Positions 665 through 23,894 of a DNA stretch of 50,969 nt are shown here, one piece after another (position 1 is the first letter of the stretch; each line of letters starts with the position of its first letter). The translations under genes and the position numbers were made by a program. Below the pieces are notes generated by a model. It saw only the letters and a list, made by a program, of their open reading frames with translations, was not told where the DNA came from and did no database searches. The stretch comes from Bacillota bacterium (lineage in GTDB: Bacteria > Bacillota > Clostridia > Acetivibrionales > DUMC01): NCBI GenBank assembly GCA_013314855.1, contig JABUEW010000012.1:1-50969 (forward strand), written 5' to 3'.

Positions 665-1381
665 ATGACATACATTCAAATATTTTTGATTTTTCTATTG
701 TCCGGCATAACCCAAGGAGCTTTAGGTTTTGGTTTTGCTATAATTTCAGTTCCACTTCTTACATTGATTCTACCAATAAAAATTGCTGCCGTTGTAGTAC
801 TTTTGCTTGGTTTTATTACAAATCTGCAGCTTGTTATAAGGCTTAGAAAGCATGTGGATCTGAAGATTGTTTCTACTCCTGTTGTGTTTTCAATAATTGG
901 AAGACTTACAGGAACTTACATTCTTATAAATTCTGCAGGAGACGTACTAAGAGTAATACTTGGTATTTTCCTTGTCTTGCTTTCAATTTATTTTTTCAGG
1001 TATAGTACAAAAATTAAAATACATGCTTCTTTTTTAAACGGGTCTATTGCAGGGTCCCTGAGCGGTTTGTTTGGTGGAATGTTCAATATTTCCGGTCCTC
1101 CAATAGTAATTTACTATATTTCAAGTATAAACGATAAAATGAAATATGCAGCCTGTATGCAGATAACGATGACAACAAGTTCAGTTTTTTCGATACTAAT
1201 ACACATATTATATGGTAATATTGACTGGAATGTTCTTACGTATGTTGGTACCGGTCTGGCAGCTGCAATTGCAGGAAGCCTTCTCGGTCTCTATATTTTT
1301 ACAAAGATCAACAAGGAGAATCTGAATAAAATTATATACATTTTTCTTATGTTGATGGGAGTTATCCTTGTAATAAGGTAA
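665..1381 (+). CDS. TauE/SafE family sulfite/organosulfonate exporter
   Basis: A 238-residue, highly hydrophobic protein with about seven to eight membrane segments. The N-terminal pattern GITQGALGFGFAIISVPLL and the second-half repeat GSIAGSLSGLFGGMFNISGPP are the duplicated glycine-rich signatures of the TauE/SafE family (PF01925). Members export sulfite, sulfoacetate or other small sulfonated and carboxylated anions across the plasma membrane. The start at 665 has the ribosome binding site GAGGAGAGAAT just upstream. It is a single gene facing the long minus-strand island, with a shared terminator between them. Its position next to a probable sulfo-sugar locus suggests export of a sulfonate or sulfite end product, but the family is too broad to fix the substrate. 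Confidence 0.85.
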   Translation: MTYIQIFLIFLLSGITQGALGFGFAIISVPLLTLILPIKIAAVVVLLLGFITNLQLVIRLRKHVDLKIVSTPVVFSIIGRLTGTYILINSAGDVLRVILGIFLVLLSIYFFRYSTKIKIHASFLNGSIAGSLSGLFGGMFNISGPPIVIYYISSINDKMKYAACMQITMTTSSVFSILIHILYGNIDWNVLTYVGTGLAAAIAGSLLGLYIFTKINKENLNKIIYIFLMLMGVILVIR

Positions 1382-2549: not shown

Positions 2550-3887
2550 TCAGCACAAATAACCCTTCAGGTACTCCGAATGAACTTTTATAAGTTCATC
2601 AACAACATTCTCAATCTGGTCGATGTCTAATACACTGTGGGTAAGCGGATCCATCATCAATGCCCAATACACATAGCGCCTGTCATGCTTTAGCATGGCT
2701 TCAACAGCAAGTTGATGAACATTGATTTCCATCCTGTTCAAAGCTGCCAGCTGGGTAGGCAAATCGCCATAGATGCATGGATGGACCCCACTCCTGTCAA
2801 CAAGAGATTTTACCTCAACTGCACTGAATTCCGGCAGATTAGTAATAAGTCCTCGGTTTATAAAATTAGCATACACCTTGCAAGGAATATTAGTTACCAA
2901 GGAATTCAAGATTTGTGGACCATATTCCACACTTCTTTCATAGTTTGGCAATTCATGTTTTACAGCCTTATCCAATATAGCTTTGTAGTTATTCTCTTTC
3001 CTCTTCGCAAAAAAACTGTATTTATCAATCTCTACAAGATACTTATCCGCCAGCTCCCGGGTACGCAGATAATATGGAACATATTCCGCGAAATGTGTAC
3101 TGGATTCGGTAACCATATATCCGGTTCTATTAAGCATATCGAGTCTTGTGGGTCCCAGCTTTGCTACCACATCATCATCGTCATTTTTTCCTGATGAATA
3201 AATACCTCGCTCTTTTACCAGGTTTCTGAAAAGAGGGTATATATCCTCACCGTTTCTTTCCAGTTTTGTAATCCATGCCATATGGTTTATGCCTGCACAA
3301 TCATAGTCCAGTTCATCATATGGGATATCAAGATATTTCGCTATGGTTTTTGTAGTTCCCTGTACACTGTGGCATAATCCTATAAAGGGTACTTTACTCA
3401 CGGATGCGGCATACATAACAAGCATCGCCTGGGGGTTTGTATAGTTTAAAACAACAACATCCTGAGAACTGTTTTTTTCTATCAGCTTCAGCATTTTCTC
3501 ACAGAACGGCATGGTCCTTAAACCCCGGAAAACACCCGCTATTCCCGACGTATCACCTATTGTCTGATTAAGTCCGTATTTCTTGGGTATTTGCATGTCC
3601 GAATCAACCGCGCCTAATAGTCCTATTTTAACAAGATTGATGACAAAATTGCATCCTTCAAGTGCTTTCTCAAGGTCAAGGGTATAAATTATATTACGGA
3701 CTGAACATCCGGTCTTTGCAAGGTATTCATCAATGATTATCTTCAGATTGTCAAGTCTTGACCTGTCAATATCCATAAATACTATTTCACTATCCTGCAA
3801 AGCTTCAAAGCTTAAAATATCCACCATGAGTCTGAATGTAAATCCATAGCTTCCAGCTCCGATAAATGCTATCCTGGGATTTTTCAT
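2550..3887 (-). CDS. Glycoside hydrolase family 4 (alpha-galactosidase/6-phospho-glycosidase type, NAD+ and Mn2+ dependent)
   Basis: About 445 residues. It shows the N-terminal Rossmann motif FIGAGSYGF, the conserved NYTNPQA, then GLCHSVQ (Cys173) and AGINHMAW (His203). The Cys and His are the metal ligands of GH4, at nearly the positions of Thermotoga AglA. GH4 enzymes cleave glycosides by NAD+-dependent oxidation at C3, elimination and re-addition, in the cytoplasm. ATG 3887 follows GGAGAATGAAGTG; a GTG one codon upstream is an alternative. It sits directly after the solute-binding protein gene, so it should act on the glycoside that the ABC transporter imports. In this context it is a candidate NAD+-dependent sulfoquinovosidase-like enzyme, but ordinary alpha-galactosidase or alpha-glucuronidase activity cannot be excluded. 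Confidence 0.85.
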   Translation of the reverse strand: MKNPRIAFIGAGSYGFTFRLMVDILSFEALQDSEIVFMDIDRSRLDNLKIIIDEYLAKTGCSVRNIIYTLDLEKALEGCNFVINLVKIGLLGAVDSDMQIPKKYGLNQTIGDTSGIAGVFRGLRTMPFCEKMLKLIEKNSSQDVVVLNYTNPQAMLVMYAASVSKVPFIGLCHSVQGTTKTIAKYLDIPYDELDYDCAGINHMAWITKLERNGEDIYPLFRNLVKERGIYSSGKNDDDDVVAKLGPTRLDMLNRTGYMVTESSTHFAEYVPYYLRTRELADKYLVEIDKYSFFAKRKENNYKAILDKAVKHELPNYERSVEYGPQILNSLVTNIPCKVYANFINRGLITNLPEFSAVEVKSLVDRSGVHPCIYGDLPTQLAALNRMEINVHQLAVEAMLKHDRRYVYWALMMDPLTHSVLDIDQIENVVDELIKVHSEYLKGYLC

Positions 3888-3946
3888 CACTTCATTCTCC
3901 TTTTTTCATAATGTCATTAGAGTTGCAGTTTAATCTTTATTAAAGA

Positions 3947-3984
3947 GCAGGCACACTCCTTAACTGAAATGGAAGTATGCCTGC
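3947..3984 (-). promoter_or_regulatory. Intercistronic hairpin after the solute-binding protein gene
   Basis: The arms GCAGGCATACT and AGTGTGCCTGC (minus strand) pair over 11 bp with one G-U, in the 127-bp gap between the solute-binding protein and GH4 genes. No T-run follows, so it is more likely an mRNA-stabilising or partial-termination hairpin that keeps binding-protein message in excess, as is common after such genes. Confidence 0.55.
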
Positions 3985-4014
3985 GCGTAAATATCCGATC
4001 ATCAAACCATGTTT

Positions 4015-5652
4015 CTATTTTTCAGAATTCGCTTCTTTTTCAAGGATTTCACCACCAGCCTTTTTCCACTTTTGAACATATTCATCAAAATATTCAAGTG
4101 GTTTATCACCGGTAATAATCTGCGTATAAGCCTCTTCCCTCAATTTATCCAATTCTGCCTTGTATTTTGATATGGAAGGCAGCGGATTTATAAGTGCATC
4201 CATCATCCCATATTCCCTGAAATAATGTTTATCCATCCATTCCGTGAATACAGGCGACGGCTTGAAATCCATTGGCCCATAATTAAAGCACTGAAGGACT
4301 ATATGTCCTCCTTTCTTACTAGCTTCCAGAGCTTTCCAATTCGGATTAACAGGATCGACAGTCCCGTACTCATTTAATTTCCAGTCCCTACCTTCCATTC
4401 CATAATATGCTGTAGCATTTTCCTCAAGGCTGACGAAGTGGATGTCATTGATAACCTGCAATAGCCGCGAAAATTTGTCTGGTTCTTTTTCCAATTGTTT
4501 TCCAAAGGAGTATACAAGGTCACCAAAGAATTTATCACGTAGAACCCCTCGTGCTCCATTCGGTCCTGCCGGCGGCTTTCCAAATACCAGTTCTTCAACA
4601 GCTTTAGGATTCAGTTTAGCCATTTCTGCTCTTGAAGGTGAAACATCCATTCTTCCCGGAAATGACGGTACCCAGTTATGAAATGCACCTGCACAGGTAA
4701 AGCCTATCCTCCCCTGTATAAATGGAACACCTAGCAGGCTTCCTACCTTTTCACCTGTAACGAATTCAGGGTCAAGGACCTTGTCTGCATACCATTTGCG
4801 GAGAAGTCCAAGGGCTTCCTTCATTTCCGGCTGTATTCCTCCAAAAACCAGCCTTCCATCCTTTTCCGTCCAGATATTCGGCTGGTATCCGTAAGCACCG
4901 TACACCACACTCATACCTTCCTTTGACAAACCATAGGTATCTTTTTTACCGTTCCTATCGGGGTCCTCGTGAGCAAAAGCATACATGGCTTTTTCAAATT
5001 CTTCAATTGTGTCGGGCTCCTTTTCCATTCCTACATTTTTTAGCCAGTCGCCACGATAAAGAACCGGCTTCCTATAAATATTCTTATGCTGTATTACAGG
5101 TATGCCATAAAGTCCCCCGTCAAAATTATAGTATTTGGTAAATACGTCAGGTCCGATTAATTCCTTGTAATGTGCAACCATTTCAGGTGCATAATATTCA
5201 AGTACATCCCTGGGAATCTCCATTAATATATTCTGTTCATAATAATTAAGGAAGTTTGTAGCCGGTTGTATCCTGAAAAGGTCCGGGACCTCTCCGCTGG
5301 CTACTCTAAGAGCAATAAGCTCCGCATATTTTGACATATCGATGTACCATAAATCAAATTTCACATTGAATTTCTCCTCAAAGTACCTAAGGATATAAGG
5401 ATCGCTGTCCAGAGGTGCCATCTGATATGATGTCCAGCTAAAAGTATATTGCTTGTTCGGATCAGGCTTATACTTTTCCGGAATGCCAGAAGAGTCTGTT
5501 TTGGCTACCGTACTGCTTGTCTGGCTACTTGTTTCGGAAATTTCACCCCCTCCGGAATCCTTGTCTTTTTGTTTTGGCGCGCATCCTGTGACATTCAGCA
5601 ATAATGCCAAAACCAGACCTGCAGTTAGAATTTTTGAAAAAATCTTCACCAT
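4015..5652 (-). CDS. Extracellular solute-binding lipoprotein of a sugar ABC transporter (family 1, LplA-like)
   Basis: 545 residues. The signal peptide (MVKIFSKILTAGLVLALLLN) ends in the lipobox VTGC, with Cys24 as the lipidated residue. It is followed by a Ser/Gly/Asp/Lys-rich linker and a large family-1 binding domain. The internal segment DPDRNGKKDTYGL is the Ca-binding-like loop usual in LplA/YtcQ-type proteins. It captures a glycoside outside the membrane and delivers it to the LplC/LplB permeases encoded just upstream, with a URO-D gene between. The start has AAGGAGGGTACGAAT before ATG. No ATPase gene is present, as is normal for this class, which borrows a shared MsmX-type ATPase. The sugar bound cannot be read from sequence; context suggests a sulfoquinovosyl compound. 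Confidence 0.9.
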   Translation of the reverse strand: MVKIFSKILTAGLVLALLLNVTGCAPKQKDKDSGGGEISETSSQTSSTVAKTDSSGIPEKYKPDPNKQYTFSWTSYQMAPLDSDPYILRYFEEKFNVKFDLWYIDMSKYAELIALRVASGEVPDLFRIQPATNFLNYYEQNILMEIPRDVLEYYAPEMVAHYKELIGPDVFTKYYNFDGGLYGIPVIQHKNIYRKPVLYRGDWLKNVGMEKEPDTIEEFEKAMYAFAHEDPDRNGKKDTYGLSKEGMSVVYGAYGYQPNIWTEKDGRLVFGGIQPEMKEALGLLRKWYADKVLDPEFVTGEKVGSLLGVPFIQGRIGFTCAGAFHNWVPSFPGRMDVSPSRAEMAKLNPKAVEELVFGKPPAGPNGARGVLRDKFFGDLVYSFGKQLEKEPDKFSRLLQVINDIHFVSLEENATAYYGMEGRDWKLNEYGTVDPVNPNWKALEASKKGGHIVLQCFNYGPMDFKPSPVFTEWMDKHYFREYGMMDALINPLPSISKYKAELDKLREEAYTQIITGDKPLEYFDEYVQKWKKAGGEILEKEANSEK

Positions 5653-5707
5653 ATTCGTACCCTCCTTATAAATTTGATTTATACATAACCGTTTAATGGT
5701 TAGTACC

Positions 5708-6814
5708 TTATGTATTTTTCACAAACCATTCCAAAATCTCATCCGCTTCGTCCTGGCTCGATGCTCTTACATGATAAACAGCCTTTTCGGGTTTTAGTTC
5801 CTTGTGCATGATTTTAATTTGGTCTATACTCCCCCTGACCTCAACCGCCTTGCCAACCGCCTGTATTTCTTTCAATAAATCCAGATATTCAATTAACTCC
5901 CCATTCCCAGCACCGGGTACAACCTGTATAATATATAGTCCCTTGCTGTTTAAAACACTGTTTTTATGAGCAGCTATAGCACCCAAACCATCCCAGTGGT
6001 ACATTGCATGTTTCACCACCTCGGCTTCTTCTTCAAGGGCGGGCATCACCCAGCGGTTGAACATTTCAGGGCTGATCATGATGCTGAAATCGCATTGAAG
6101 AATAGCCGCGCCATCAAATGAATAGACATCGTGGCGCACATATCCGTATTCATCCATCCTTCCCGCTTCCCTCATTACATCCCACAACTCACGGAAAATA
6201 TTCTTCGCATCCTTCATTGCGTCGTCGATTAACTCCGGACAATCCAGCAAGTCCATGCATAAAGCCTGGGGACCTCTTATGGCAGCCAGCAAATCCATGT
6301 TTGTATGAAGGTCCAGTGTTGTCAACAGCATTTTCCCTCCAAGCTTCTCAAATGCCTTTTCATAAAATTTCATCAGTCTTTTCCATATATAGCATTCTTT
6401 ATTTAATTTAATTGGAAGAGATTTCTTCCAGTCCTCCACAAAAGGCTTAGCCCATATGGTATCCGCAGAATCAGGATTAATCTCAAGTTCTGCACCGCAC
6501 AATGCAGCTATAGTATCGGGGCCGAAGGTAATGTTTATCGACGGTAAAGCTTCACCCCCGTAATATGTGCTTTTTGCCGCTTCAAGCACTTCATCGATTG
6601 CCCGGTCCATATCGCCGAAAATACGCTCTTCCAGCATCCATAACTGTTTGGCAGTCTTTTCAATTTTATGTCCGTTTTTTGGAGCAATTACCGACACAAT
6701 CGGTCTATCGATAATATCGCCGTTGAAGAATGCATCCCATCTTTTCGATACATCACACAAGTCAGGTTTGAACAGTATTGGCTTAGGATATCTTTGACCG
6801 GTATTCAAATCCAT
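5708..6814 (-). CDS. URO-D superfamily protein (HxDG variant) in sugar ABC operon
   Basis: 368 residues, with AAAGGGGAGATGAT before ATG. The C-terminal half has YHWDGLG (His273) followed by YIIQVVPGAGNG. This matches the HLDG...IQWTPGAG pattern I recall for a URO-D-fold family found in Firmicutes carbohydrate loci. The Cys of the His-x-Cys-Gly zinc motif of corrinoid methyltransferases is replaced by Asp. It lies between the permease and binding-protein genes of the ABC transporter, so it is co-transcribed with uptake. No corrinoid protein or reactivase is encoded nearby. Possible roles are a demethylase or lyase acting on a modified sugar, or a non-enzymatic role. Function is not known. Confidence 0.75.
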   Translation of the reverse strand: MDLNTGQRYPKPILFKPDLCDVSKRWDAFFNGDIIDRPIVSVIAPKNGHKIEKTAKQLWMLEERIFGDMDRAIDEVLEAAKSTYYGGEALPSINITFGPDTIAALCGAELEINPDSADTIWAKPFVEDWKKSLPIKLNKECYIWKRLMKFYEKAFEKLGGKMLLTTLDLHTNMDLLAAIRGPQALCMDLLDCPELIDDAMKDAKNIFRELWDVMREAGRMDEYGYVRHDVYSFDGAAILQCDFSIMISPEMFNRWVMPALEEEAEVVKHAMYHWDGLGAIAAHKNSVLNSKGLYIIQVVPGAGNGELIEYLDLLKEIQAVGKAVEVRGSIDQIKIMHKELKPEKAVYHVRASSQDEADEILEWFVKNT

Positions 6815-6843
6815 ATCATCTCCCCTTTTTATTGTTGTTTTAA

Positions 6844-7704
6844 TTATCCTTTAAGAGATCCAACCATTATACCTTTGACAAAATACTTCTGAATAAACGG
6901 ATATACCAGGAGAATAGGCATTATTGTAATGATTGTAGCGGCAGCCTTAAATGATTCAGGATTCATGTATTCTACATCTATTTCCTGGAAAGCAGCTTCA
7001 ATTACAATACGCCTTGTCACATTCTGGAGGACCTGCTTTTTGGGATCAGTAATATACATCAGAGCGTCAAACCAGGCATTCCAGTGATATACGGCTGTCC
7101 ACAAGAATAATGTGGCAATGATGGGCATGGATAATGGCAGAATAATGCTGAAAAGTATCCTGAAGTCCTTTGCCCCGTCTATCCTGGCTGACTCCTCCAG
7201 TGTCTCCGGAATTGACGCAAAAAAGTTCCTTACAATAATCATATGGTATGTAGTAACCAGGCGCGGAAGCACTAATGCCCATACCTTGTTTATCAACCCT
7301 AAGTTTTTCACCAGTAAATAATTCGGTATCAAACCTCCGCTGAAATACATGGTGAATACAATTAATGCCATCCAAAATGTCCTGTTCGGAAGGTACTTTT
7401 TTGAAAGTGGATACGCAAGAAGAATCGTTACACTCATTGAAAAAAAACAGCCGGTTACAAGCCTGATAACACTGTTCCGGAATCCGCTAGCGATAAATTT
7501 GTCCTTAAACACACGCTGATAATTAATGATTGAGACTTCCGGCGGTATAATATTTATTTCGGTGAAAGGAACTGATGGTGCGGAAAAGGATAACGATAAC
7601 ACATATAAAAAAGGGTATATTATTGAAATAGAAAATAAAATTATGAACAAATATATACAAATATCAATAATAATATCCTGAGAACTTCTTCTTGTTCTGT
7701 ACAT
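6844..7704 (-). CDS. Carbohydrate ABC transporter permease (LplC/YtcP type)
   Basis: 286 residues from ATG 7704, which has AAGGAGG 12 bases upstream; the 16 codons before it have no better site. Six predicted membrane segments. The EAA-type cytoplasmic loop is seen in ETLEESARIDGAKDFRILFSI. The C-terminal PFIQKYFVKGIMVGSLKG is the standard ending of LplC-type permeases. It pairs with the LplB-type permease encoded 41 bases upstream to form the channel for an imported oligosaccharide or glycoside. Confidence 0.92.
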   Translation of the reverse strand: MYRTRRSSQDIIIDICIYLFIILFSISIIYPFLYVLSLSFSAPSVPFTEINIIPPEVSIINYQRVFKDKFIASGFRNSVIRLVTGCFFSMSVTILLAYPLSKKYLPNRTFWMALIVFTMYFSGGLIPNYLLVKNLGLINKVWALVLPRLVTTYHMIIVRNFFASIPETLEESARIDGAKDFRILFSIILPLSMPIIATLFLWTAVYHWNAWFDALMYITDPKKQVLQNVTRRIVIEAAFQEIDVEYMNPESFKAAATIITIMPILLVYPFIQKYFVKGIMVGSLKG

Positions 7705-7745
7705 TGGAAATATATTCCTCCTTATTTTTATACATGTACTGGCTG

Positions 7746-8720
7746 CTACCATATTCCATATTCGTTTATTTTCTTAGCCAGTGAGTTGGCAAGTACTATC
7801 ATTATAAAGGCTATAACATTCTTAAATAGTCCTACGGCTGTTGCTGTGTTATATTGCATGCCTCCTAGGCCTATACGGTATATATATGTGCTGATAACAT
7901 CACCTACGCTGTAAACTGCGGGATTGTACAGGTTAAATATCTGGTCGAAATTGTCATTTACAATCCTTCCTATTGCAAATATCAACATAATGGTAATCAC
8001 CGGCGCCAGTGAAGGTATTGTAATATGTATTATTTTCTGAATTCTGCTGGCTCCATCCATTTCACCGGCCTCATATAGTTGAGAGTCAATAATTCCGCTA
8101 ATTGCAGCTATATATACTATTGATCCCCATCCAACACTTTTCCATATATCCGTAATCACCAGCGTAAATCTGAACCATTTGGGGTCACCGAGGAAAAATA
8201 CAGGAGGCAGGGTAAGTGCTTTTAAAGCAATGTTGACCGGACCGATGGAAGGCGATAAAAATTGTATGAAAAGGCCCCCAAGGATTACCCATGAAATGAA
8301 ATGCGGCAAATAACTTAATGTCTGGACGACTTTTTTAAATCCACGCAATCTTATTTCATTCAGAAGGACTGCAAGAAGTATGGGTGCAGGAAATCCAAAA
8401 ATTAAATTGTAAAGGCTTATAATCAATGTATTTCTGAATACTTGCCAGAAAGTCGGAAGATTAAATACGTGTTTGAAAACCGACAACCCAATCCATGGAC
8501 TGTTCCATATTCCCTTTTTGAACATGTATTCCTTAAAAGCTATCTGTATGCCATAAAGCGGGGCATAATGAAAAATAATGTAATAAAGCAAACCCGGAAG
8601 CATCATTATAAATAAATATCTGTATTTGAAATATTTATAAAATATTCCTCTATTATGTAGAGAATAAGCAGCTTCTGTTTTATTAGTTCTATTAACTATA
8701 TTTTCAAGATTTTCAAGCAA
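7746..8720 (-). CDS. Carbohydrate ABC transporter permease (LplB/YteP type)
   Basis: 324 residues from a TTG at 8720. This start is preferred because AAAAGGGGGTG lies 6 bases upstream, and because a promoter (-10 at 8770-8775) lies downstream of the longer frame's start at 8789. The typical N-terminal segment LLPGLLYYIIFHYAPLYGIQ, the EAA loop LYEAGEMDGASRIQKIIHIT and the ending AKKINEYGIW identify the LplB type. First gene of the transporter operon, downstream of the AraC-type sensor gene. Confidence 0.92.
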   Translation of the reverse strand: MLENLENIVNRTNKTEAAYSLHNRGIFYKYFKYRYLFIMMLPGLLYYIIFHYAPLYGIQIAFKEYMFKKGIWNSPWIGLSVFKHVFNLPTFWQVFRNTLIISLYNLIFGFPAPILLAVLLNEIRLRGFKKVVQTLSYLPHFISWVILGGLFIQFLSPSIGPVNIALKALTLPPVFFLGDPKWFRFTLVITDIWKSVGWGSIVYIAAISGIIDSQLYEAGEMDGASRIQKIIHITIPSLAPVITIMLIFAIGRIVNDNFDQIFNLYNPAVYSVGDVISTYIYRIGLGGMQYNTATAVGLFKNVIAFIMIVLANSLAKKINEYGIW

Positions 8721-8769
8721 ACCTTTCACCCCCTTTTCGATGCTCAAAACGGTAGTCATCCATATAAAC

Positions 8770-8798
8770 AGTTTAAAAGCTAATATCATTTAAGTCAA
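8770..8798 (-). promoter_or_regulatory. Promoter of the ABC transporter operon
   Basis: Minus strand: -35 TTGACT (8793-8798), a 17-base spacer and -10 TAAACT (8770-8775). Transcription would start near 8762, giving a short leader to the TTG start at 8720. This supports separate control of the transporter/GH4 operon by the AraC-type sensor-regulator encoded just upstream. Confidence 0.5.
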
Positions 8799-11376: not shown

Positions 11377-12468
11377 TTACCTTATCAATATGTCCGGTCT
11401 TTTAAGCTCCTTTCCTTCATATACTACCTCAATATACGGATATTCACCGGTATAGGTAAGTATTTGATTTTCGTCTTCCATTACAATGATGGTATCTTCC
11501 GATTTTGTTCCTGAAATGGAAGGATTCCATGCAAATGCCTGGTTCGCTTTTACAATTTCCAGACATTTTTCCGTACCACGATATTCCCTGGCCATATATC
11601 CTGTGAGTCCTCCCTGGTGATGCAGCTTCCACTCGTCGGCATAACCGGTTCGCCTGTACTCCTCGAGCGCCAGTTTGAAAACATCTGAAACTGCCATTTC
11701 CGGCCTTGTACTTAATATAAATGCAGCATCCGTTTTTGTAACTGCACTGTGTTTTACCTTGATATCGTCAGGGAGTTTGCCGAAGTGGACAAATCTTGTC
11801 AGTGAGGCATATAACCCCTGCCTTCTTGCACATACGGCAATCATCAGGTACTTGTCCAGACTTTTGCTCGTCGGCAGAGGATGCCTGTATTTAAACAGTC
11901 TCCAGTCCGAACCGACTAATATCGTTATGGGTTCTATTCCTAACGACCAGAGTCTTTTTCCGACTTCTCCGGCAATTTCATACTCTGTCGTTCCCTGTCT
12001 TACTAAAAAGCAAACATCCTCTACAGCATTTGCCGCTTCATACCCCAGCGCTTTATACCTGAATATTTCAACATCATCCAGGGTGCTTCGCATACTCCTG
12101 AATTCACCGGCCAGCTCCGTATCAACTGCTGCATTCCTTATTCCGAGGGTTTGTAAAGCAAGCTCCCTGATGTCGATATCATCGTACCAGTTGTATATAG
12201 CGTCATCAAAGCTCAATCCCCCGAGTTCTTCGTCATGCAGCCTTCCGGCTTCAATATTGTTAGCAATCAGCAGTATCCTGTCACGGGTAATTGCGATGGA
12301 CGCACAGGATGTCTCCGATGCAAGTCCGACAAACCCTCTGCCACCCGTCAACCATGAAAAATTGGGTAAAGAGCTGACGACAATCCCGTCAAGCTCTTTA
12401 TCCGATGCCAGTTTCCTCACTTTTTCCACTTTTCTTTTAAAACTTTCCACCGTGCTGGTTATACTCAT
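11377..12468 (-). CDS. M24 (creatinase/aminopeptidase P fold) family protein, metal site not conserved
   Basis: 363 residues from ATG 12468, which has AGGATGG upstream. It has an N-terminal creatinase-like domain (LDGIVVSSLPNFSWLTGGRG) and a C-terminal pita-bread domain. Metal-dependent M24 enzymes carry Asp, Asp, His, Glu, Glu ligands. Here the region expected to hold the two Asp reads CARRQGLYASLTRFV with no Asp. The His is kept (LHHQGGLTGY), the usual IEPG Glu is replaced (AWNPSISG), and only the last Glu (KSEDTIIV) remains. It is therefore probably not a metallopeptidase. It may be a creatinase-type hydrolase or a pseudo-enzyme. It follows the aldolase gene within 13 bases and is the last gene of the catabolic operon. 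Role in sugar breakdown unknown. Confidence 0.75.
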   Translation of the reverse strand: MSITSTVESFKRKVEKVRKLASDKELDGIVVSSLPNFSWLTGGRGFVGLASETSCASIAITRDRILLIANNIEAGRLHDEELGGLSFDDAIYNWYDDIDIRELALQTLGIRNAAVDTELAGEFRSMRSTLDDVEIFRYKALGYEAANAVEDVCFLVRQGTTEYEIAGEVGKRLWSLGIEPITILVGSDWRLFKYRHPLPTSKSLDKYLMIAVCARRQGLYASLTRFVHFGKLPDDIKVKHSAVTKTDAAFILSTRPEMAVSDVFKLALEEYRRTGYADEWKLHHQGGLTGYMAREYRGTEKCLEIVKANQAFAWNPSISGTKSEDTIIVMEDENQILTYTGEYPYIEVVYEGKELKRPDILIR

Positions 12469-12481
12469 TTCAACCATCCTG

Positions 12482-13348
12482 TTATATTTTGATTTCCTGT
12501 GCTCTTCCATCAGAGCCTAATGCGCGTATGATGTCCTTAATATCCTTTTTCAGATGATCCTTGCAGGCCTGCATGATTCTCCATGCATGGAATTCATGAT
12601 TCAGGGAATTGCTATACTCATTGAAATATTGAATGTAGTTCATCCTGAGTCCTTCTCCGAAGTTAATTTTGCTCATGCCTTTTTCCACACATTTCGAAAT
12701 GGTTTCAAGGGATACGCCGCTTGTTCCGTGAAGTACCAGCGGTACATCCGTTACTTTCCTGATTTCGGTTATATGGTCGACATTAATACCGGTCTGCTCC
12801 TTGAAAATTCCATGAGTGGTGCCTATTCCAACAGCCAGCAAATCCACATCGACATTTTCCACAAACTGCTTTACTTCATCCGGACTTGTCAGCGGTGCCT
12901 TCTTACCTTCCGCTTCTGAGCTCTTGATAATATTTCCTACCTCTGCCTCAACGCTTATACCCAGAGGCCTAACAAGATTTATCACAAGATTTGTACCATC
13001 AATATTTTCTTCCAGCGGGCAGCCTGCATAATCGATCATAACCCCTGTAAATCCTGCTTTTACAGCCCTCATGATCGACTCGAGGCTCTTGCCGTGGTCA
13101 AGCTGCATGGCTATGGGGATTGTACAATCCGAAGCCAGATAACGTGTCAGGTAAGTAAAAAAATCATACCCGCGGTATTCAAGGTTGGGCTCATAACACT
13201 GTATTATAAGGGGGGATTGCAGTTCCTCAGCTGCTTCTATTATCGCCCTCGTAATATCATAAGTTGCCCCATTGGTATTTAAAGCAGGTACTGCATAGCC
13301 TTTCCGGGCTGCATCATCGGCAAGCACTTTTGAATTACATATTTTCAT
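12482..13348 (-). CDS. Class II fructose-bisphosphate aldolase family protein
   Basis: 288 residues with AAAGGGGTAAAATAAT before ATG. Zinc-ligand motifs in order: QLDHGKS, AVGIGTTHGIF and LVLHGTSG, which are the standard class II (FbaA/GatY/KbaY/IolJ) signatures. It cleaves a ketose phosphate to dihydroxyacetone phosphate plus an aldehyde in the cytoplasm. It lies 23 bases downstream of the isomerase gene. A transketolase-based sulfo-sugar pathway consumes glyceraldehyde 3-phosphate as acceptor, so an aldolase in the operon may help supply it (inference). Exact substrate (fructose-, tagatose- or another 1-phosphate) not determined. Confidence 0.88.
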   Translation of the reverse strand: MKICNSKVLADDAARKGYAVPALNTNGATYDITRAIIEAAEELQSPLIIQCYEPNLEYRGYDFFTYLTRYLASDCTIPIAMQLDHGKSLESIMRAVKAGFTGVMIDYAGCPLEENIDGTNLVINLVRPLGISVEAEVGNIIKSSEAEGKKAPLTSPDEVKQFVENVDVDLLAVGIGTTHGIFKEQTGINVDHITEIRKVTDVPLVLHGTSGVSLETISKCVEKGMSKINFGEGLRMNYIQYFNEYSNSLNHEFHAWRIMQACKDHLKKDIKDIIRALGSDGRAQEIKI

Positions 13349-13371
13349 ATTATTTTACCCCTTTCTTTATT

Positions 13372-14805: not shown

Positions 14806-14827
14806 TTTCAGCAGCTCCTTTTAATGT

Positions 14828-14960
14828 AAGGGGACACACCATTCCAGAAATCAGATGTCAGAAGTCAGAAATTAGATTTAAGTAGGCTTTGAAGCAATTT
14901 AATAATTCTGTTATCTGGTCTCTGTTTTCTGTTCTCTGCAGTTTCGGAATGTCCCCTTTC
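14828..14960. mobile_element. Miniature inverted-repeat element with GGGGAC termini
   Basis: Left end AAGGGGACACACCATTCC, right end GGAATGTCCCCTTT, giving imperfect terminal inverted repeats about 130 bases apart. The arms inside are rich in CAGA units on the left and their complement TCTG on the right, so the whole element can fold into one long imperfect hairpin. It has no reading frame. It fills almost all of the 165-base gap between the RpiB-like and isomerase genes, unlike the tight spacing elsewhere in the operon. I read it as a MITE-like insertion. Confidence 0.55.
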
Positions 14961-14970
14961 GACGCTAAAG

Positions 14971-15447
14971 CTATTTAAAATTTATTTCTTCCAGTTTCTT
15001 TATTTCTTCAAGGGCGCCGCAGAGAAATTTTCGCCTGTCCGCCGGGAACCCCTCGGTAAAATCCGCTTCAAGCCATCTGTTCACCATGTCTATTGCCTGC
15101 TGAGGCGCAATAAGCCAGCCCCCCATCGTAATGATGTTGGCTTTGTTGATAATTTTACTCATCCTGGCTGAATAGCTGCTTTCAACAGCCACCGCATAGA
15201 CACCTTTGAATTTATTCGCCACGATGCACATGCCCGCGCCGGTTCCACAAATCAAGACGGCTTTTTCCACTTCACCCTTCTGGACTTTCCTTGCCACAAC
15301 GGGTGCTACCTCGTAATAGGGTTTGAACCCATCGGGATCCGTCATACCCAGGTCTTCAACTTCATACCCCAGTGAAACCAGATGTTTTTTCACCTCCTCC
15401 TTCAAACTGAAACCGGATTTATCGGAACCTACTGCAATCTTCATCAT
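14971..15447 (-). CDS. RpiB/LacA/LacB family isomerase (candidate 4-deoxy-4-sulfoerythrose isomerase, SqwI)
   Basis: 158 residues, with GGAGGTAAAAAG before the first ATG. The family motif ICGTGAGMCIVANKF carries Cys67, the catalytic base position of RpiB. Differences from ribose-5-phosphate isomerase B: SDHxG is SDKSG at the N terminus, and the stretch after the YSA motif reads SKIINKANI, without the His of the usual QHNDTN that opens the furanose ring. An acyclic substrate would not need that His; 4-deoxy-4-sulfoerythrose cannot form a furanose, so the loss fits the sulfo-transketolase pathway. It lies 4 bases after the transketolase gene. Specificity is an inference. Confidence 0.82.
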   Translation of the reverse strand: MMKIAVGSDKSGFSLKEEVKKHLVSLGYEVEDLGMTDPDGFKPYYEVAPVVARKVQKGEVEKAVLICGTGAGMCIVANKFKGVYAVAVESSYSARMSKIINKANIITMGGWLIAPQQAIDMVNRWLEADFTEGFPADRRKFLCGALEEIKKLEEINFK

Positions 15448-15451: not shown

Positions 15452-16399
15452 TTACCTCCTATTTTTTTTTGCGATGACTTCTTCCGCCGCGCGCGCTATA
15501 TCCCCGGCAGTCATATGGTATTTTTCAAACAGGTATTCCTTCCTGCCGACCTCCCCAAAATGGTCTGCAACGCCTATCCTTTTCATTGGAACCGGGCACT
15601 CTTCGATCAATACTTCAGCCACGGCGCTGCCCAGACCGCCGATAATGTTGTGGTTTTCAACCGTTACCACCGCACCTGTTTCCCTGGCTGCGGAAATGAC
15701 ACCTTCACGGTCAATAGGCTTTATGGTATGTATATTGACCACCTTTGCGCTTATTCCTTTGACTTTAAGGATTTCTGCCGCATCCAGAGCGCTTCTGACC
15801 AGTATTCCGGTTACAAAGAGGGTTACATCCTTTCCATCCAACAGCAAGTCGGACTTCCACAGATCAAATTTGTATCCGTCATCAAATATCTTAAATGCAC
15901 GCCTTCGATATAACCTGATATATACCGGTCCGTAATGTGCGGCAATCTGGGGCATTGCCTTTTTCAGTTGAGTGCCGTCAACTGGCTCGAATATGGTCAT
16001 ACCGGGCAGTGTTCTCATAATGCCGACATCCTCCAGACTCATATGGGTGCCTCCGTTCAATTCCGCTGTAACACCCGGATCGGTACCCCCGATTTTCACA
16101 TTCAGTCCGGCATATGCCACCGATATGGTAATCTGATCAAAACACCTTCTTGTGGCAAAAGCGGTAAAGGAATTGGCAAAAGGTATCTTCCCGAAGGCGC
16201 TTAAGCCTGCCGCAACCCCAATCATATTGGCTTCCGCTACACCGACATCCACAGTCCTTTCAGGAAACCTTTCCTTAAAAGGCACAGTACCCGAAGCTTT
16301 CATTAAATCAGCTTCAAGAAGTACAATACGCTCATCTTTTTCAGCAAGCGCTATCAATGATTCACAGTAAACCGCTCTTAATTCCTTGTCATCAAACAT
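15452..16399 (-). CDS. Transketolase, C-terminal subunit (candidate 6-deoxy-6-sulfofructose transketolase)
   Basis: 315 residues covering the pyrimidine-binding and C-terminal domains of a split transketolase. The motif VGVAEANMIGVAAGLSAFG contains the Glu that activates thiamine diphosphate. FATRRCFDQI follows the usual family pattern. The ATG has GGAGGAGTGAATTGA upstream, inside the end of the partner gene, so the two subunits are translationally linked. The complex moves two-carbon ketol units. In the proposed pathway it works twice: on sulfofructose to give sulfoerythrose, then on sulfoerythrulose to give sulfoacetaldehyde, each time making xylulose 5-phosphate from glyceraldehyde 3-phosphate. 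Confidence 0.92.
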   Translation of the reverse strand: MFDDKELRAVYCESLIALAEKDERIVLLEADLMKASGTVPFKERFPERTVDVGVAEANMIGVAAGLSAFGKIPFANSFTAFATRRCFDQITISVAYAGLNVKIGGTDPGVTAELNGGTHMSLEDVGIMRTLPGMTIFEPVDGTQLKKAMPQIAAHYGPVYIRLYRRRAFKIFDDGYKFDLWKSDLLLDGKDVTLFVTGILVRSALDAAEILKVKGISAKVVNIHTIKPIDREGVISAARETGAVVTVENHNIIGGLGSAVAEVLIEECPVPMKRIGVADHFGEVGRKEYLFEKYHMTAGDIARAAEEVIAKKNRR

Positions 16400-16404: not shown

Positions 16405-17238
16405 TCACTCCTCCATACCTTTGTCAAGTTCCTTTAACGCCTGCGCGACATCTTCTTTTGTCACAGGCATATTATGTGAGCCGACCTTTCCTTCACAGAA
16501 CGAAGCGCCCTTTCCTTTGACAGTGTTCAGTATGATCATTGAAGGCTTTCCGCTTACTTCCTGCGCTTTTACAATGGCATCATATATCTGTTTTATGTCG
16601 TGTCCGTCCACCGATTGTGTGTACCAGCCGAAAGATTTCCATTTATCTTCAATCGGTTCCAGAGAATTAATCTCGTCGGTTGTCCCGTCAATCTGCATTT
16701 TGTTGTAATCGGTAAATCCAATCAGATTATCCAGTTTTTTTTGCGACGCAAGCATGGCTGCCTCCCATACTTGTCCTTCCTGGCTTTCTCCGCATCCGAT
16801 CAGGGCATATACTCTCACATTCTTTCTGTCCATCTTTGCAGCAATTGCCATGCCTACAGCTGCCGAAATCCCCTGTCCTAGCGATCCCGCCGTCATATCA
16901 ATTCCTATAGTACGCTGCATGTCGCAGTGACTGGGGAGCTTAGTACCCGGCTTGTTCAGGGTCATCAGTTCTTCTACAGGGAAATAGCCCTTCATAGCTA
17001 GAACAGCATATAATGCCGGTCCCGCGTGTCCTTTTGACAGTACAAACCTGTCCCTCTCCTCCCATTTCGGGTCAGCAGGATTGATCTTCATGACCTTGTA
17101 ATATAATACTGTCAGAACCTCCGCTATGGACATGGCTCCGCCGATGTGCCCTACTCCGACTTCTCCGATCATGCTGACAATGTTTTTTCTAACATCCACT
17201 GCTACTTTACGTAAATGCTTCAATTCTTCTTCTCTCAT
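16405..17238 (-). CDS. Transketolase, N-terminal (TPP-binding) subunit, with Mg-ligand Asp replaced by Cys
   Basis: 277 residues from ATG 17238, with AAGGTGGTCAGA upstream; GTG 17256 is possible but has no better site. It has the HxG motif VGHIGGAMSIAEVL, SKGHAGPALYAVL, and the TPP motif region IGCGESQEGQVWEAAM followed by DYNKMQIDG. The usual sequence is GDGE; the Asp that holds the Mg2+ of thiamine diphosphate is Cys here (codon TGC, read directly). The rest of the site is intact, so this is more likely a subfamily feature than damage. It forms the enzyme with the subunit encoded downstream. Confidence 0.92.
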   Translation of the reverse strand: MREEELKHLRKVAVDVRKNIVSMIGEVGVGHIGGAMSIAEVLTVLYYKVMKINPADPKWEERDRFVLSKGHAGPALYAVLAMKGYFPVEELMTLNKPGTKLPSHCDMQRTIGIDMTAGSLGQGISAAVGMAIAAKMDRKNVRVYALIGCGESQEGQVWEAAMLASQKKLDNLIGFTDYNKMQIDGTTDEINSLEPIEDKWKSFGWYTQSVDGHDIKQIYDAIVKAQEVSGKPSMIILNTVKGKGASFCEGKVGSHNMPVTKEDVAQALKELDKGMEE

Positions 17239-17261
17239 TCTGACCACCTTCTCCACATTTA

Positions 17262-18146
17262 CTATTTATTTAAAACCGATCGCAGCAGTTCCCCCACCTG
17301 GCTCGGCCGCTTCGCTACAAGCGCCCCTGCACCTGTCAACGCGTCGGCCTTGCTGGCCGCAGTTCCTTTTCCTCCGGTGACAATAGCTCCCGCGTGTCCC
17401 ATTTTTTTCCCCGGCGGCGCAGTCCACCCTGCAATAAAGGCTACCAGCGGTTTTGTAAATTTACCGTCTGCAATGACCCGGGCCACTTCTTCTTCCATCG
17501 TACCTCCGATTTCCCCGATCATTACTACCGCATCAGTATCGGCATCATTTTGAAATAGAGGCAGCACTTCCGCAAATCTTGTCGCGGGAACCGCATCACC
17601 TCCTACTCCGACCAGGGTAGAGACTCCAAAGCCTGCCTTTACAACCATGGCAGTTACTTCATTTGTCAACGAGCCACTGCGGGTCATCACTCCTATTCTG
17701 CCTTTACGGTAAACCCTGTCTATCCAATATGGGAAAAAACCCATCATCGCTACACCGGGAGTAATAACACCCGTTGTATTTCCCCCGAAAATCATCGCTC
17801 CACATTCCAGTGCTGCGCTTCTGATTTTCAGGGTATCATGAAGGGGTATGCCTTCAGCTGTTACCACAATCTTTCGTATGCCTGCGTCAATGGCTTCGAA
17901 GACGGCATCCTTTGCAAACTGGGGTGGAACAAACAAAAGTGAAGCGTCAGGATTGGTTTTTGCGGCAGCGCGCCTGACAGTGTGGAATACCGGTACCCCT
18001 TCAACCGTCTGACCTTCTTTTCCGGGAGTCACTCCTGCTACAACACAGGTTCCGAGTTCGATCATGTGTTTTGTCCAAAATGACCCTTCTTTTCCTGTAA
18101 TGCCCTGAACAAGAACCCTTGTATCTTTATCGATGAATACACTCAT
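17262..18146 (-). CDS. ADP-forming acyl-CoA synthetase alpha subunit, SucD-like (candidate sulfoacetate-CoA ligase subunit)
   Basis: 294 residues, the usual length of SucD. It has the CoA-binding Rossmann region VLVQGITGKEGSFW, TAEGIPLHD and the active-site KKMGHAGAIVTGGKGTA; His251 is the phosphohistidine. Its ATG overlaps the stop of the beta-subunit gene (ATGA) and AAAGGGGGGAGAAAA precedes it. The enzyme converts an acyl-CoA plus ADP and phosphate to acid plus ATP. There is no TCA-cycle gene around. Paired with a CoA-acylating aldehyde dehydrogenase and a DASS anion transporter, the best fit is sulfoacetyl-CoA hydrolysis with ATP capture (SqwKL of the sulfoacetate-forming sulfo-transketolase variant). 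True succinyl-CoA synthetase is the alternative. Confidence 0.9.
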   Translation of the reverse strand: MSVFIDKDTRVLVQGITGKEGSFWTKHMIELGTCVVAGVTPGKEGQTVEGVPVFHTVRRAAAKTNPDASLLFVPPQFAKDAVFEAIDAGIRKIVVTAEGIPLHDTLKIRSAALECGAMIFGGNTTGVITPGVAMMGFFPYWIDRVYRKGRIGVMTRSGSLTNEVTAMVVKAGFGVSTLVGVGGDAVPATRFAEVLPLFQNDADTDAVVMIGEIGGTMEEEVARVIADGKFTKPLVAFIAGWTAPPGKKMGHAGAIVTGGKGTAASKADALTGAGALVAKRPSQVGELLRSVLNK

Positions 18147-20795: not shown

Positions 20796-22271
20796 TCACA
20801 TTCCGACAATGTGGGCCATTCCAAAAAATACTGCTCCTGCCACCACCGATACAATGATTGTCATGGGTATTCCAATCAGAGCCATATCCTTCAGCGAAAA
20901 ATAGCCCGCCGAATAAGGGATAACACTGGTTGGCGTTTCGGTAACCAGTATGAACGCCATACAGGCTGAATAGGCCGCGGGTACGGCAAGAAACCAGGGA
21001 CTTACGTGCAAAGCACTTCCCATGGCAATCATAAGCGGCACGGTTACGGCTCCGGTTACCGTATTGCTGGAGAAGCATAGATGAATGATGCCCACCACCA
21101 GGACTGCAAACATTGCAAGTATTACCGGCGGCAGGACCTCCACACGGAGCCCGTAAGCAATCACCCATGCAAGCCACCTGGCCGCCCCCGTATCAAATGC
21201 AATCTTGCCCAGTGCAAGACCGGAAGTGATCAATATAATGCCTCCCCAGTCCACACTTTTTTCGACATCCTTCCAGCTAAAGATGTTCAATCCCGGTATA
21301 AAAAGCAGTATTCCTCCCAAAATGGCCACAATCTGCATTGTAAGGTTGATGCGTCCTCCGGTGGCTGTCTTGATAGAAGGTGCGGCAAGCCAGAGAACAA
21401 TCATCCCTGAAAAAATTACCATTGTGGCAATTTCCTTCTTGTTCAGGCCTTTTTCAGCTTCTCCTGCCACATCATCTATATTGATTTCATCTAACTCGCT
21501 GGGATACGCTCTGGTGATTATAAGCCACGCTATAGGAACCAATACAATTACTGCCGGAACACCTATAGCCATCCAGTCCAGGAACCCTATATTCAAATTT
21601 GCATATTTGTTCAAAAGACTTATGGCGAGTACATTGCTCCCACTGCCAACCGGAGTCCCCATTCCTCCCACCAGTGGTCCCCAGGCACATGCAATCAGCA
21701 AGGATTTGCCAAAATTGCTTTTCATAGCCTTGATCCCGCATTTGTCAAGTATACCGACTGCAAGTGGGGTAAAAAGAGCAGCTGCGGCCACTTCAGTAAA
21801 CCACATGGCGCTGAATGCACCGAAAATTAAAAATACCAGGATTATTCTTGACGGGTTTTTACCGACCATGCCAAGTATGAGCCGCGACAACCTCGTACTG
21901 AGACCTGAGCTTCTGAAAGCAGCGGAAACCATCATGACACCGATAAAGAAAAGGATTAAAGGGTCTCCAAAGCTGGCTGCAACCGTATCGGAAAACGTAC
22001 TTACGCCGAAAGCAGGAATCAGCAGCAAAGTGATAAATGCAGTAATCACAAACGGAACAGCTCCAGTCATCCAGGAAAAAATCGCGAAGGCAAATACAGC
22101 AAGCGTGTCTTTTGCTTCCCCGGTAAGCTGTACCAGTTCGCTGCCCATGTAAAACGGCTTTGGTACCGGCACAAAATGTATGAGAAACATCAACACGAAT
22201 GCCAGGATAAGATATATACCGTTTTTATATTCAGATGTCAACCGTTTAGGCGAAAACGAAATAGAAGTCAT
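20796..22271 (-). CDS. DASS/SLC13 family anion transporter (candidate sulfoacetate exporter)
   Basis: 491 residues from ATG 22271, with AAGGGATGGTGG upstream; the ATG at 22283 is too close to AAGGG. About 12 membrane segments. The paired family signatures are WGPLVGGMGTPVGSGSN in the first half and LCFSSNTVTGAVTVPL in the second, the SNT-type Na+/anion site of divalent-anion:Na+ symporters. DASS proteins carry sulfate, dicarboxylates and sulfonated acids. As first gene of the operon, its likely job is to remove the anionic end product (sulfoacetate) or take up a related anion. Direction of transport cannot be seen. Confidence 0.88.
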   Translation of the reverse strand: MTSISFSPKRLTSEYKNGIYLILAFVLMFLIHFVPVPKPFYMGSELVQLTGEAKDTLAVFAFAIFSWMTGAVPFVITAFITLLLIPAFGVSTFSDTVAASFGDPLILFFIGVMMVSAAFRSSGLSTRLSRLILGMVGKNPSRIILVFLIFGAFSAMWFTEVAAAALFTPLAVGILDKCGIKAMKSNFGKSLLIACAWGPLVGGMGTPVGSGSNVLAISLLNKYANLNIGFLDWMAIGVPAVIVLVPIAWLIITRAYPSELDEINIDDVAGEAEKGLNKKEIATMVIFSGMIVLWLAAPSIKTATGGRINLTMQIVAILGGILLFIPGLNIFSWKDVEKSVDWGGIILITSGLALGKIAFDTGAARWLAWVIAYGLRVEVLPPVILAMFAVLVVGIIHLCFSSNTVTGAVTVPLMIAMGSALHVSPWFLAVPAAYSACMAFILVTETPTSVIPYSAGYFSLKDMALIGIPMTIIVSVVAGAVFFGMAHIVGM

Positions 22272-22289
22272 CGAGTCCACCATCCCTTG

Positions 22290-23048: not shown

Positions 23049-23894
23049 ATGCTGAATATTGCAGCACATAAAAATAACTTCACAGAAGGCCGGGGACTGG
23101 TGGACAATGACAACTATCTGACCGTCGTAGGCTCAGGTTATCAACGCTTTATTACAAAAGATTGGAGCGTTATACGGGAAAAGGGAAGACCCGATTATCA
23201 GATTATTTATATTATTAAAGGCAGAGGATTTTTTACATTCAATGAGCAAACATATGAGGTGCCCGAGGGCAGCATAGCAATTTATACCCCCGGTCTGCCG
23301 CAGTATTACAATTACTACTGCCGGGATTGTACCGAGGTCTGCTGGGTTCACTTCACAGGAAACGGCGTTCACCGTCTTCTTGAAAGCATGAACCTTTTGG
23401 ACTCGAATATATATCATATAGGTTATGGAAAAGAGTTTGTAGAGCTTTTCAATGAGATCACACACGAACTCCAGGTCAAGCGTCCCAGGTTTGAGGAACT
23501 GTCTTCCGCCCTGCTTCTTTCTCTACTTGGTAAAATAGCCCGGGTGATGGATGAATCCAAAATACGCAAAATCAATACAACTTTTGAAAAAATATTCAAA
23601 ATGATGCATTCAAACTTCAACAGAAACCAGCAAATCCGGGACTACGCCAAAGAATGCAATCTCAGCGTTTACTGGTTTATACATAAGTTCAAGGAGTTGA
23701 CCGGTTTCTCACCCACAGCCTATATTAAGCAGCTCAGAATCAACGAAGCAAAATACCTTCTGTCCAATTTCTCCTTAAGCATCAGCGAGGTTTCCTTCAT
23801 GGTAGGTTACGAAAACCCGTTATATTTCAGTAGAGTTTTCAAGCAGGAAACCGGCATTTCACCGAGAGATTATAGAAAGACCTTATTGCTTTAA
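23049..23894 (+). CDS. AraC family transcriptional regulator (cupin sensor plus helix-turn-helix)
   Basis: 281 residues with GGGAGGGTATTTCTA before ATG. The N-terminal AraC-type cupin (about 20-165) includes DYQIIYIIKGRGFF and YEVPEGSIAIYTPG. The C-terminal double helix-turn-helix (about 180-280) ends YENPLYFSRVFKQETGISP. It is cytoplasmic, binds a sugar or acid ligand and regulates transcription. It is divergent from the DASS-led catabolic operon, with only the GH42 remnant between, so it is the likely local regulator. It may originally have controlled the lost beta-galactosidase. Confidence 0.92.
   Translation: MLNIAAHKNNFTEGRGLVDNDNYLTVVGSGYQRFITKDWSVIREKGRPDYQIIYIIKGRGFFTFNEQTYEVPEGSIAIYTPGLPQYYNYYCRDCTEVCWVHFTGNGVHRLLESMNLLDSNIYHIGYGKEFVELFNEITHELQVKRPRFEELSSALLLSLLGKIARVMDESKIRKINTTFEKIFKMMHSNFNRNQQIRDYAKECNLSVYWFIHKFKELTGFSPTAYIKQLRINEAKYLLSNFSLSISEVSFMVGYENPLYFSRVFKQETGISPRDYRKTLLL

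What the first reader, a model, noticed from the sequence alone, without database searches (positions are those of the whole stretch)
2550..8720. GH4 glycosidase plus LplABC-type importer as a possible NAD+-dependent sulfoquinovoside uptake and hydrolysis module
The GH4 enzyme (Cys173/His203 metal ligands intact) sits in the operon of a sugar ABC transporter next to the sulfo-sugar catabolic genes. Known sulfoquinovosidases are GH31 and an NAD+-dependent oxidoreductive family. A GH4 member doing this job would be a different enzyme solution.
Basis: inference. Interest (0 to 1): 0.6.

Follow-up and report, generated by a model that had tools for sequence, protein, structure and literature searches.

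The report
Candidate GH4 sulfosugar glycosidase beside sulfoglycolysis genes
A bacterium that seems to ferment the plant sulfosugar sulfoquinovose, but in which neither known enzyme for freeing that sugar from its lipid was found, carries beside the pathway an unusual relative of the melibiose-cutting enzyme MelA together with a sugar importer; this may be a third kind of sulfoquinovosidase, but it could equally be an ordinary alpha-galactosidase.

Summary
Window 2550-3890(-) is an intact GH4 enzyme (GAGS, Cys173/His203) in an importer operon reaching 8789. It lies between an oxidative sulfo-transketolase cluster (11377-22283) and a TauE-family exporter (665-1381).

The sulfoquinovosidase reading is plausible but unproven.

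For: no GH31 YihQ, no GH188 signature and no close SmoF-like binding protein were found in the genome. Sulfo-TK loci with enough flank pair YihQ with an ABC importer; here GH4 plus importer fills that slot. The GH4 forms a deep branch of its own; the only other member found, a 65% identical fragment, lies beside a sulfoquinovose-isomerase-like gene, an aldolase and a 44% similar regulator. A further genome has importer-GH4-kinase-aldolase-isomerase.

Against: it is MelA-type (CHSV motif, 38.6% to E. coli MelA). Related GH4 operons sit in alpha-galactoside loci, one with the same unannotated partner (UroD1). The binding protein resembles oligosaccharide binders, the operon has its own AraC sensor, and no sulfonate site can be named.

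I put about 0.4 on GH4 cleaving a sulfoquinovose glycoside, 0.35 on a plain alpha-galactosidase.

The parts
665..1381 (+). TauE/SafE-family permease, candidate organosulfonate exporter
   Evidence: PF01925, 114 bits; best relatives (36% and 33%) lie in SftI-aldolase-PfkA clusters L178 and L054
1428..2504 (-). unannotated 358-aa protein ('UroD2', possibly distantly URO-D-like), last gene of the GH4 operon
   Evidence: no Pfam or NCBIfam hit; the name is my inference
2550..3890 (-). GH4 NAD+/metal-dependent glycosidase, CHSV (MelA-type) subgroup, divergent branch; candidate sulfoquinovosidase
4015..5652 (-). lipoprotein solute-binding protein, 545 aa
   Evidence: SBP_bac_8, just under its cut-off; nearest solved relatives include alginate-binding AlgQ1/AlgQ2
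5708..6814 (-). unannotated 368-aa protein ('UroD1'), homologous (34%) to a protein next to a URO-D gene, GH4 and GH36 in L168
6844..7752 (-). sugar ABC importer permease (LplC type)
   Evidence: PF00528
7746..8789 (-). sugar ABC importer permease (LplB type)
   Evidence: PF00528
8902..11238 (-). membrane-sensor-like AraC-family regulator, 778 aa
   Evidence: HTH_18 and HTH_AraC
11377..12510 (-). M24/creatinase-like protein; recurs in other SftI-bearing clusters
12482..13348 (-). class II ketose-bisphosphate-type aldolase
   Evidence: PF01116
13372..14805 (-). SftI-like isomerase (candidate sulfoquinovose isomerase)
   Evidence: only NCBIfam hit is SftI, 155 bits, far under its cut-off of 700; tree
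14971..15447 (-). RpiB-family isomerase, SqwI-like
   Evidence: 48-53% to RpiB genes of other sulfo-TK loci
15452..16399 (-). transketolase C-terminal subunit (SqwH/G-like)
   Evidence: 56-63% to sulfo-TK loci
16405..17256 (-). transketolase N-terminal subunit (SqwG/H-like)
   Evidence: 60-63% to sulfo-TK loci
17262..18146 (-). SucD-like CoA-ligase subunit (SqwL/K-like)
   Evidence: named from the read sequence; SqwKL role by analogy (PMC12890257)
18143..19330 (-). SucC-like CoA-ligase subunit (SqwK/L-like)
   Evidence: named from the read sequence; SqwKL role by analogy (PMC12890257)
19287..20708 (-). CoA-acylating sulfoacetaldehyde dehydrogenase (SauS/SqwD-like)
   Evidence: NF047625, 536 bits against a cut-off of 600
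20796..22283 (-). DASS-family anion transporter, candidate sulfoacetate exporter
   Evidence: TIGR00785, above its cut-off
23049..23894 (+). AraC-type regulator ('AraC2')
   Evidence: 44-45% to regulators beside SftI and aldolase in L051, L054, L178

Best explanation
Most likely, and only by a small margin, the GH4 enzyme is an intracellular NAD+/metal-dependent glycosidase that frees sulfoquinovose (SQ) from an imported alpha-glycoside such as sulfoquinovosyl glycerol. The binding protein (4015-5652) and the two permeases import the glycoside, probably with a shared ATPase encoded elsewhere. The GH4 would oxidise C3 with bound NAD+, eliminate the aglycone, add water and reduce C3 again (established GH4 chemistry). 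SQ then passes through the SftI-like isomerase, SqwGH transketolase and SqwI to sulfoacetaldehyde, and through the SauS-like dehydrogenase and SucCD-like ligase to sulfoacetate, which leaves by DASS or TauE. Shown: gene content, order, motifs, phylogenetic isolation, and failure to find GH31 YihQ or GH188-signature proteins in the genome. Inferred: the substrate of the GH4, the substrate of the importer, and co-regulation.
For: No GH31 YihQ match in the genome, using a query that itself matches E. coli YihQ at E 3e-260. None of the 44 Gfo/Idh/MocA hits carries the SqgA motif EKxCHxFD seen in solved SqgA enzymes. No close SmoF-like SQ binding protein (best 49.5 bits). Sulfo-TK loci L052, L152 and L182 each hold YihQ plus an ABC importer, and L164 holds YihQ; here importer plus GH4 fills that slot. 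The GH4 and a 65% identical fragment in G015 form their own branch (100/100, stem 1.49), and the fragment lies beside an SftI-like isomerase, aldolase and AraC2-type regulator. G042 has ABC-GH4-PfkB-aldolase-SftI-like (46%) genes together. The GH4 operon is followed by a TauE gene whose best relatives lie in SftI clusters. No minus-strand terminator-like site lies in the gaps between the SftI and GH4 operons. Residue 154 is Gln where all 37 compared MelA-type rows have Met after the conserved Asn-Pro. The rumen study PMC13219744 reports sulfo-TK Caproiciproducens with neither YihQ nor SqgA and raises a yet unknown sulfoquinovosidase.
Against: The enzyme is MelA-type (CHSV; 38.6% to E. coli MelA; NCBIfam alpha-galactosidase). 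Neighbouring branches sit in loci with galactokinase/galT-like genes or GH36. The unannotated partner 'UroD1' recurs in L168 beside URO-D, GH4 and GH36, with no sulfo genes seen. The binding protein resembles oligosaccharide binders. The operon has its own AraC-type gene. The two best supporting cases are weak: L051 is a gene fragment on a short MAG contig with an adaptor-like end, and the L050 GH4 belongs to another branch. No sulfonate-binding residues could be identified. Apart from the window, GH4 lies near only 2 of about 17 other isomerase loci viewed.
Confidence: 0.4

Rival explanations
1. An ordinary alpha-galactoside uptake and hydrolysis operon (MelA-type GH4, importer, UroD1/UroD2 partners, own AraC sensor) that happens to lie next to the sulfo-TK cluster.
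For: CHSV motif and closest characterised enzyme MelA; related GH4 genes lie with galactokinase/galT-like genes or GH36; UroD1 homolog in the L168 GH4/GH36 locus; separate regulator; no shared operator motif clearly above shuffles; a degenerate GH42-like remnant upstream of DASS shows that galactoside genes have been in the area.
Against: This GH4 is a long-stem outlier from all sampled alpha-galactosidase-context members. No galactose-utilisation gene was recognised in the ORFs read in the window. The operon lies between sulfonate genes, and no known sulfoquinovosidase or SQ importer was found elsewhere in the genome.
Confidence: 0.35
2. The GH4 acts on another sulfohexoside, such as a galacto-configured 6-sulfo sugar (sulfofucose), or on a sulfated sugar, which the divergent SftI-like isomerase then handles.
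For: MelA-type ancestry favours an axial 4-OH; the isomerase is far from canonical SftI (155 against 372 bits for L164); clusters with related isomerases (L050, L184) have PfkB and tagatose-bisphosphate-type aldolases, and L051 and L064 carry sulfatases.
Against: The sulfo-TK core is 48-63% identical to that of loci with YihQ; SQ is by far the most abundant sulfohexose; no sulfatase was recognised near the window genes.
Confidence: 0.13
3. An alpha-galacturonidase or alpha-glucuronidase for acidic oligosaccharides, as in the B. subtilis lplABCD operon.
For: LplD (3fef) is the best structural and sequence match among solved proteins; the binding protein resembles alginate binders.
Against: LplD is only 26% identical and has CHEV where this enzyme and MelA have CHSV; no uronate-catabolism gene was recognised nearby.
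Confidence: 0.07

Closest known systems
E. coli MelA (GH4 alpha-galactosidase)
   Same: CHSV(Q) motif, AGINHMA motif, TESSxHFAEY motif, full-length alignment at 38.6% identity
   Different: long separate branch; Gln154 for Met after the conserved Asn-Pro, Leu91 for Gly, a longer loop around residues 230-247, and sulfonate rather than melibiose genes around it
B. subtilis LplABCD (GH4 alpha-galacturonidase LplD with importer)
   Same: GH4 plus binding protein and two permeases; best solved structural match (TM 0.85-0.88)
   Different: 26% identity; CHEV instead of CHSV
GH188 SqgA NAD+-dependent sulfoquinovosidase
   Same: NAD+-dependent oxidoreductive glycosidase chemistry; PMC10755693 itself compares SqgA with GH4 BglT
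   Different: GH188 is metal-independent and of the Gfo/Idh/MocA family; this is a metal-ligand GH4 protein
GH31 YihQ sulfoquinovosidase next to sulfo-TK genes and an ABC importer (L052, L152, L182)
   Same: same slot in the gene cluster
   Different: unrelated fold and mechanism; absent from this genome as searched
Sulfo-TK pathway, oxidative variant (SqwD/SqwKL, sulfoacetate-forming)
   Same: gene set of transketolase pair, RpiB-like, CoA-acylating dehydrogenase and SucCD-like ligase
   Different: divergent SftI-like isomerase, an added class II aldolase and M24 protein, and no YihQ

Membership tests
GH4 glycosidase | both Pfam GH4 domains over the whole protein | tested here: met
GH4 glycosidase | metal ligands Cys and His and an N-terminal dinucleotide-binding motif | tested here: met
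   C173, H203, GAGS at 11
GH4 glycosidase | GH4 fold | tested here: met
   AlphaFold2 pLDDT 89, pTM 0.90; the top 49 PDB matches are GH4
GH4 alpha-galactosidase (MelA) | CHSV motif | tested here: met
GH4 alpha-galactosidase (MelA) | NCBIfam PRK15076 score above cut-off | tested here: met
   492.6 against 486, marginal
GH4 alpha-galactosidase (MelA) | activity on alpha-galactosides | not testable with these tools
   needs enzyme assay
LplD alpha-galacturonidase | orthology to LplD, including its CHEV motif | tested here: not met
   26% identity, CHSV instead of CHEV
GH31 sulfoquinovosidase (YihQ) | GH31 domain | tested here: not met
   protein is GH4; no YihQ-type match in the genome
GH188 sulfoquinovosidase (SqgA) | Gfo/Idh/MocA protein with SqgA motifs | tested here: not met
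Sulfoquinovosidase (by function) | cleaves SQ glycosides; sulfonate-binding residues | not testable with these tools
   no ligand modelling or assay possible; no clear basic triad seen in the alignment
Sulfo-TK pathway cluster, oxidative variant | transketolase pair, RpiB-like isomerase, CoA-acylating sulfoacetaldehyde dehydrogenase, SucCD-like ligase | tested here: met
   the SucCD-like pair was named from sequence, not scanned
Sulfo-TK pathway cluster, oxidative variant | canonical SQ isomerase SqvD/SftI | tested here: inconclusive
   only SftI is hit but at 155 of 700 bits; sister branch to a canonical-like SftI in L164 with support 81/81

The most novel reading that the evidence does not exclude
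This GH4 branch is a third, independent class of sulfoquinovosidase, a metal- and NAD+-dependent GH4 derived from MelA-type alpha-galactosidases, working with a dedicated oligosaccharide-type importer in anaerobes that lack YihQ and SqgA.
Probability: 0.35. Interest if true: 0.7.

Novelty: new variant of a known kind. Interest (0 to 1): 0.5.

Why it matters
Some sulfo-transketolase bacteria lack both known sulfoquinovosidases, and a 2026 rumen study names an unknown sulfoquinovosidase as one possible reason (PMC13219744). If this GH4 does the job, it fills that gap, adds a third enzyme solution for a reaction at the entrance of a very large carbon and sulfur flux, and shows that metagenome surveys based on yihQ and sqgA miss SQ degraders. 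If it is an alpha-galactosidase, it warns against reading function from a neighbouring pathway.

Tried and rejected
GH4 scan of genome contigs with this protein found only one relative, an uninformative 44% fragment. Searches for close orthologs in 58 order-level, 391 class-level, 398 phylum-level and 147 G015-relative genomes (the sets overlap) found nothing above 45% identity except the 60-65% fragment in G015. Plasmid search: best 42%. Shared operator motifs between the intergenic regions of the GH4 and sulfo operons: 37 matches against 5-28 in shuffles, nearly all in AT-rich DASS and TauE upstream regions, so inconclusive. No PDB relative of the SftI-like isomerase or of UroD1. The D. peraridilitoris SftI-like cluster (L184) first looked like a YihQ case, but its GH31 is only 29% identical to YihQ over 454 residues. 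Most other close transketolase hits sit in gene sets without SftI-like or YihQ genes and were set aside. I considered LplD-type galacturonidase and lowered it because of the motif and 26% identity. No full text in the held library was found linking GH4 enzymes to sulfoquinovose beyond the structural comparison in PMC10755693.
Full report
Observation. The GH4 gene is at 2550-3890 on the minus strand, 446 aa, with both GH4 domains. Cys173 and His203 are invariant in a 12-sequence alignment, and the dinucleotide motif GAGS is at residue 11. Its operon reads, in transcription order, permease 7746-8789, permease 6844-7752, an unannotated 368-aa protein, a lipoprotein binding protein 4015-5652, GH4, and an unannotated 358-aa protein. 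An AraC-type sensor gene (8902-11238) lies upstream. A TauE/SafE-family gene (665-1381) faces the end of the operon. There is no sugar ABC ATPase in the window.

The neighbouring pathway. From 22283 down to 11377, all on the minus strand, lie a DASS transporter, a SauS-like CoA-acylating sulfoacetaldehyde dehydrogenase (536 bits), SucC- and SucD-like CoA-ligase subunits, split transketolase, an RpiB-like isomerase, an SftI-like isomerase, a class II aldolase and an M24/creatinase-like protein. This is the gene set of the sulfoacetate-forming variant of the sulfo-transketolase pathway as reviewed in PMC12890257. The transketolase and RpiB-like proteins are 48-63% identical to those of other loci that carry SftI and YihQ. 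The isomerase is divergent: SftI is its only NCBIfam hit, at 155 bits against a cut-off of 700, and in a tree it groups with isomerases of G120, G084 and G042. The G084 copy lies in another sulfo-TK locus (L065) with the same M24 protein.

Is a sulfoquinovosidase missing? Sulfo-TK loci with enough flanking sequence carry GH31 YihQ: L052, L152 and L182 also have an ABC importer, and L164 has YihQ within a 14-kb stretch. A YihQ query that matches E. coli YihQ at E 3e-260 found nothing in the window's genome. The tool gives no positive control for that negative, but the same sequence matches YihQ genes at 46-53% in other genomes here. Of 44 Gfo/Idh/MocA hits, none has the GGTLVEKxCHxFDL-type motif of solved SqgA enzymes. 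The best match to a sulfo-TK-type binding protein in the genome is 49.5 bits, against 384-468 bits between such loci. The assembly is 96.6% complete, so absence is likely but not certain. PMC13219744 reports sulfo-TK Caproiciproducens that lack both enzyme types and raises a yet unknown sulfoquinovosidase.

What the GH4 is. Its motif is CHSV, as in MelA; it is 38.6% identical to E. coli MelA and scores just above the NCBIfam alpha-galactosidase cut-off. LplD is the best solved match but is 26% identical and has CHEV. AlphaFold2 gives a confident GH4 fold (pLDDT 89). In a tree of 39 rows the window protein and a fragment from G015 (65% identical over 161 residues) form a separate branch with full support and a stem of 1.49 changes per column. 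At 26 of 114 columns conserved in at least 90% of the others the window protein differs, among them Gln154 for the Met after the conserved Asn-Pro, Leu91 for Gly, and Ser142-Gln143 for Cys-Pro; it also has a longer loop around 230-247. These changes fit a shifted specificity but do not reveal a sulfonate site.

Context of relatives. The G015 fragment (L051) lies next to an SftI-like isomerase, an aldolase (39%), an AraC2-type regulator (44%) and sulfatases, but it is truncated and on a 6-kb MAG contig whose end reads as adaptor-like sequence. In G042 (L050) the order is ABC importer, GH4, PfkB kinase, class II aldolase, SftI-like isomerase (46%), and a cupin-type protein with a weak DUF4867 match; PMC13219744 uses the name SftX for DUF4867. 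That GH4 belongs to a different branch, so if it is a sulfosugar enzyme, GH4 was recruited twice. Among about 17 other isomerase loci viewed, only these two have a GH4 gene; I estimate roughly 0.4 by chance, so the association is suggestive, not strong. Against it, several GH4 relatives sit with galactokinase or galT-like genes (L059, L167) or GH36 (L168), and L168 also has a homolog of the unannotated protein of this operon (34%) next to a URO-D gene.

Mechanism. Shown: gene order, domain content, cofactor and metal motifs. From established GH4 chemistry: C3 oxidation by NAD+, elimination, hydration and reduction. Inferred: that the imported substrate is sulfoquinovosyl glycerol or another SQ glycoside, that the importer binds it, and that the two operons act together. 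No minus-strand terminator-like site lies in the gaps between the SftI and GH4 operons, but promoter-like sites occur everywhere and no shared operator could be found.

Verdict. It would be a new enzyme class for a known reaction, hence 'new variant of a known kind'. One assay on pNP-alpha-sulfoquinovoside against pNP-alpha-galactoside would decide.

Noticed in passing
window 11377-12510; L065:3-686; L164:6630-7718; L184:2601-3662: An M24/creatinase-like protein recurs in four SftI-bearing clusters (38-40% in two sulfo-TK loci, 29% in Deinococcus); its role in sulfosugar catabolism is unexplained.
   Followed up: partly
window 22284-23048: Degenerate GH42-like beta-galactosidase N-terminal remnant (in-frame stops) between DASS and AraC2, on the minus strand; identified by eye.
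   Followed up: partly
L054:6994-11502; L064:7245-11071; L178:6161-10430: A cassette of LarA-like (lactate racemase family), TIM-like and SftI-like genes, with PfkA-like kinase nearby and with aldolase and TauE in L054 and L178, suggests a kinase/aldolase sulfosugar pathway with an unknown racemase step.
   Followed up: no
L184:2601-15322 (Deinococcus peraridilitoris plasmid pDEIPE01): ABC importer, SftI-like isomerase, PfkB, tagatose-bisphosphate-type aldolase, GH31 not close to YihQ, SSADH-family dehydrogenase and M24 protein: a candidate plasmid-borne sulfosugar pathway.
   Followed up: partly
L052:12847-13926: Gfo/Idh/MocA protein with top PDB hits to SqgA in a sulfo-TK locus that also has YihQ: both sulfoquinovosidase types may coexist.
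   Followed up: partly
L181:518-11785 (same genus as the window genome): Closest relative of the window's LplB permease (42%) lies beside a divergent GH36-like protein and an isomerase distantly like SftI.
   Followed up: no
window 12482-13348: Class II aldolase beside the SftI-like isomerase in a transketolase-type cluster without an obvious sugar kinase; its substrate is unclear.
   Followed up: no
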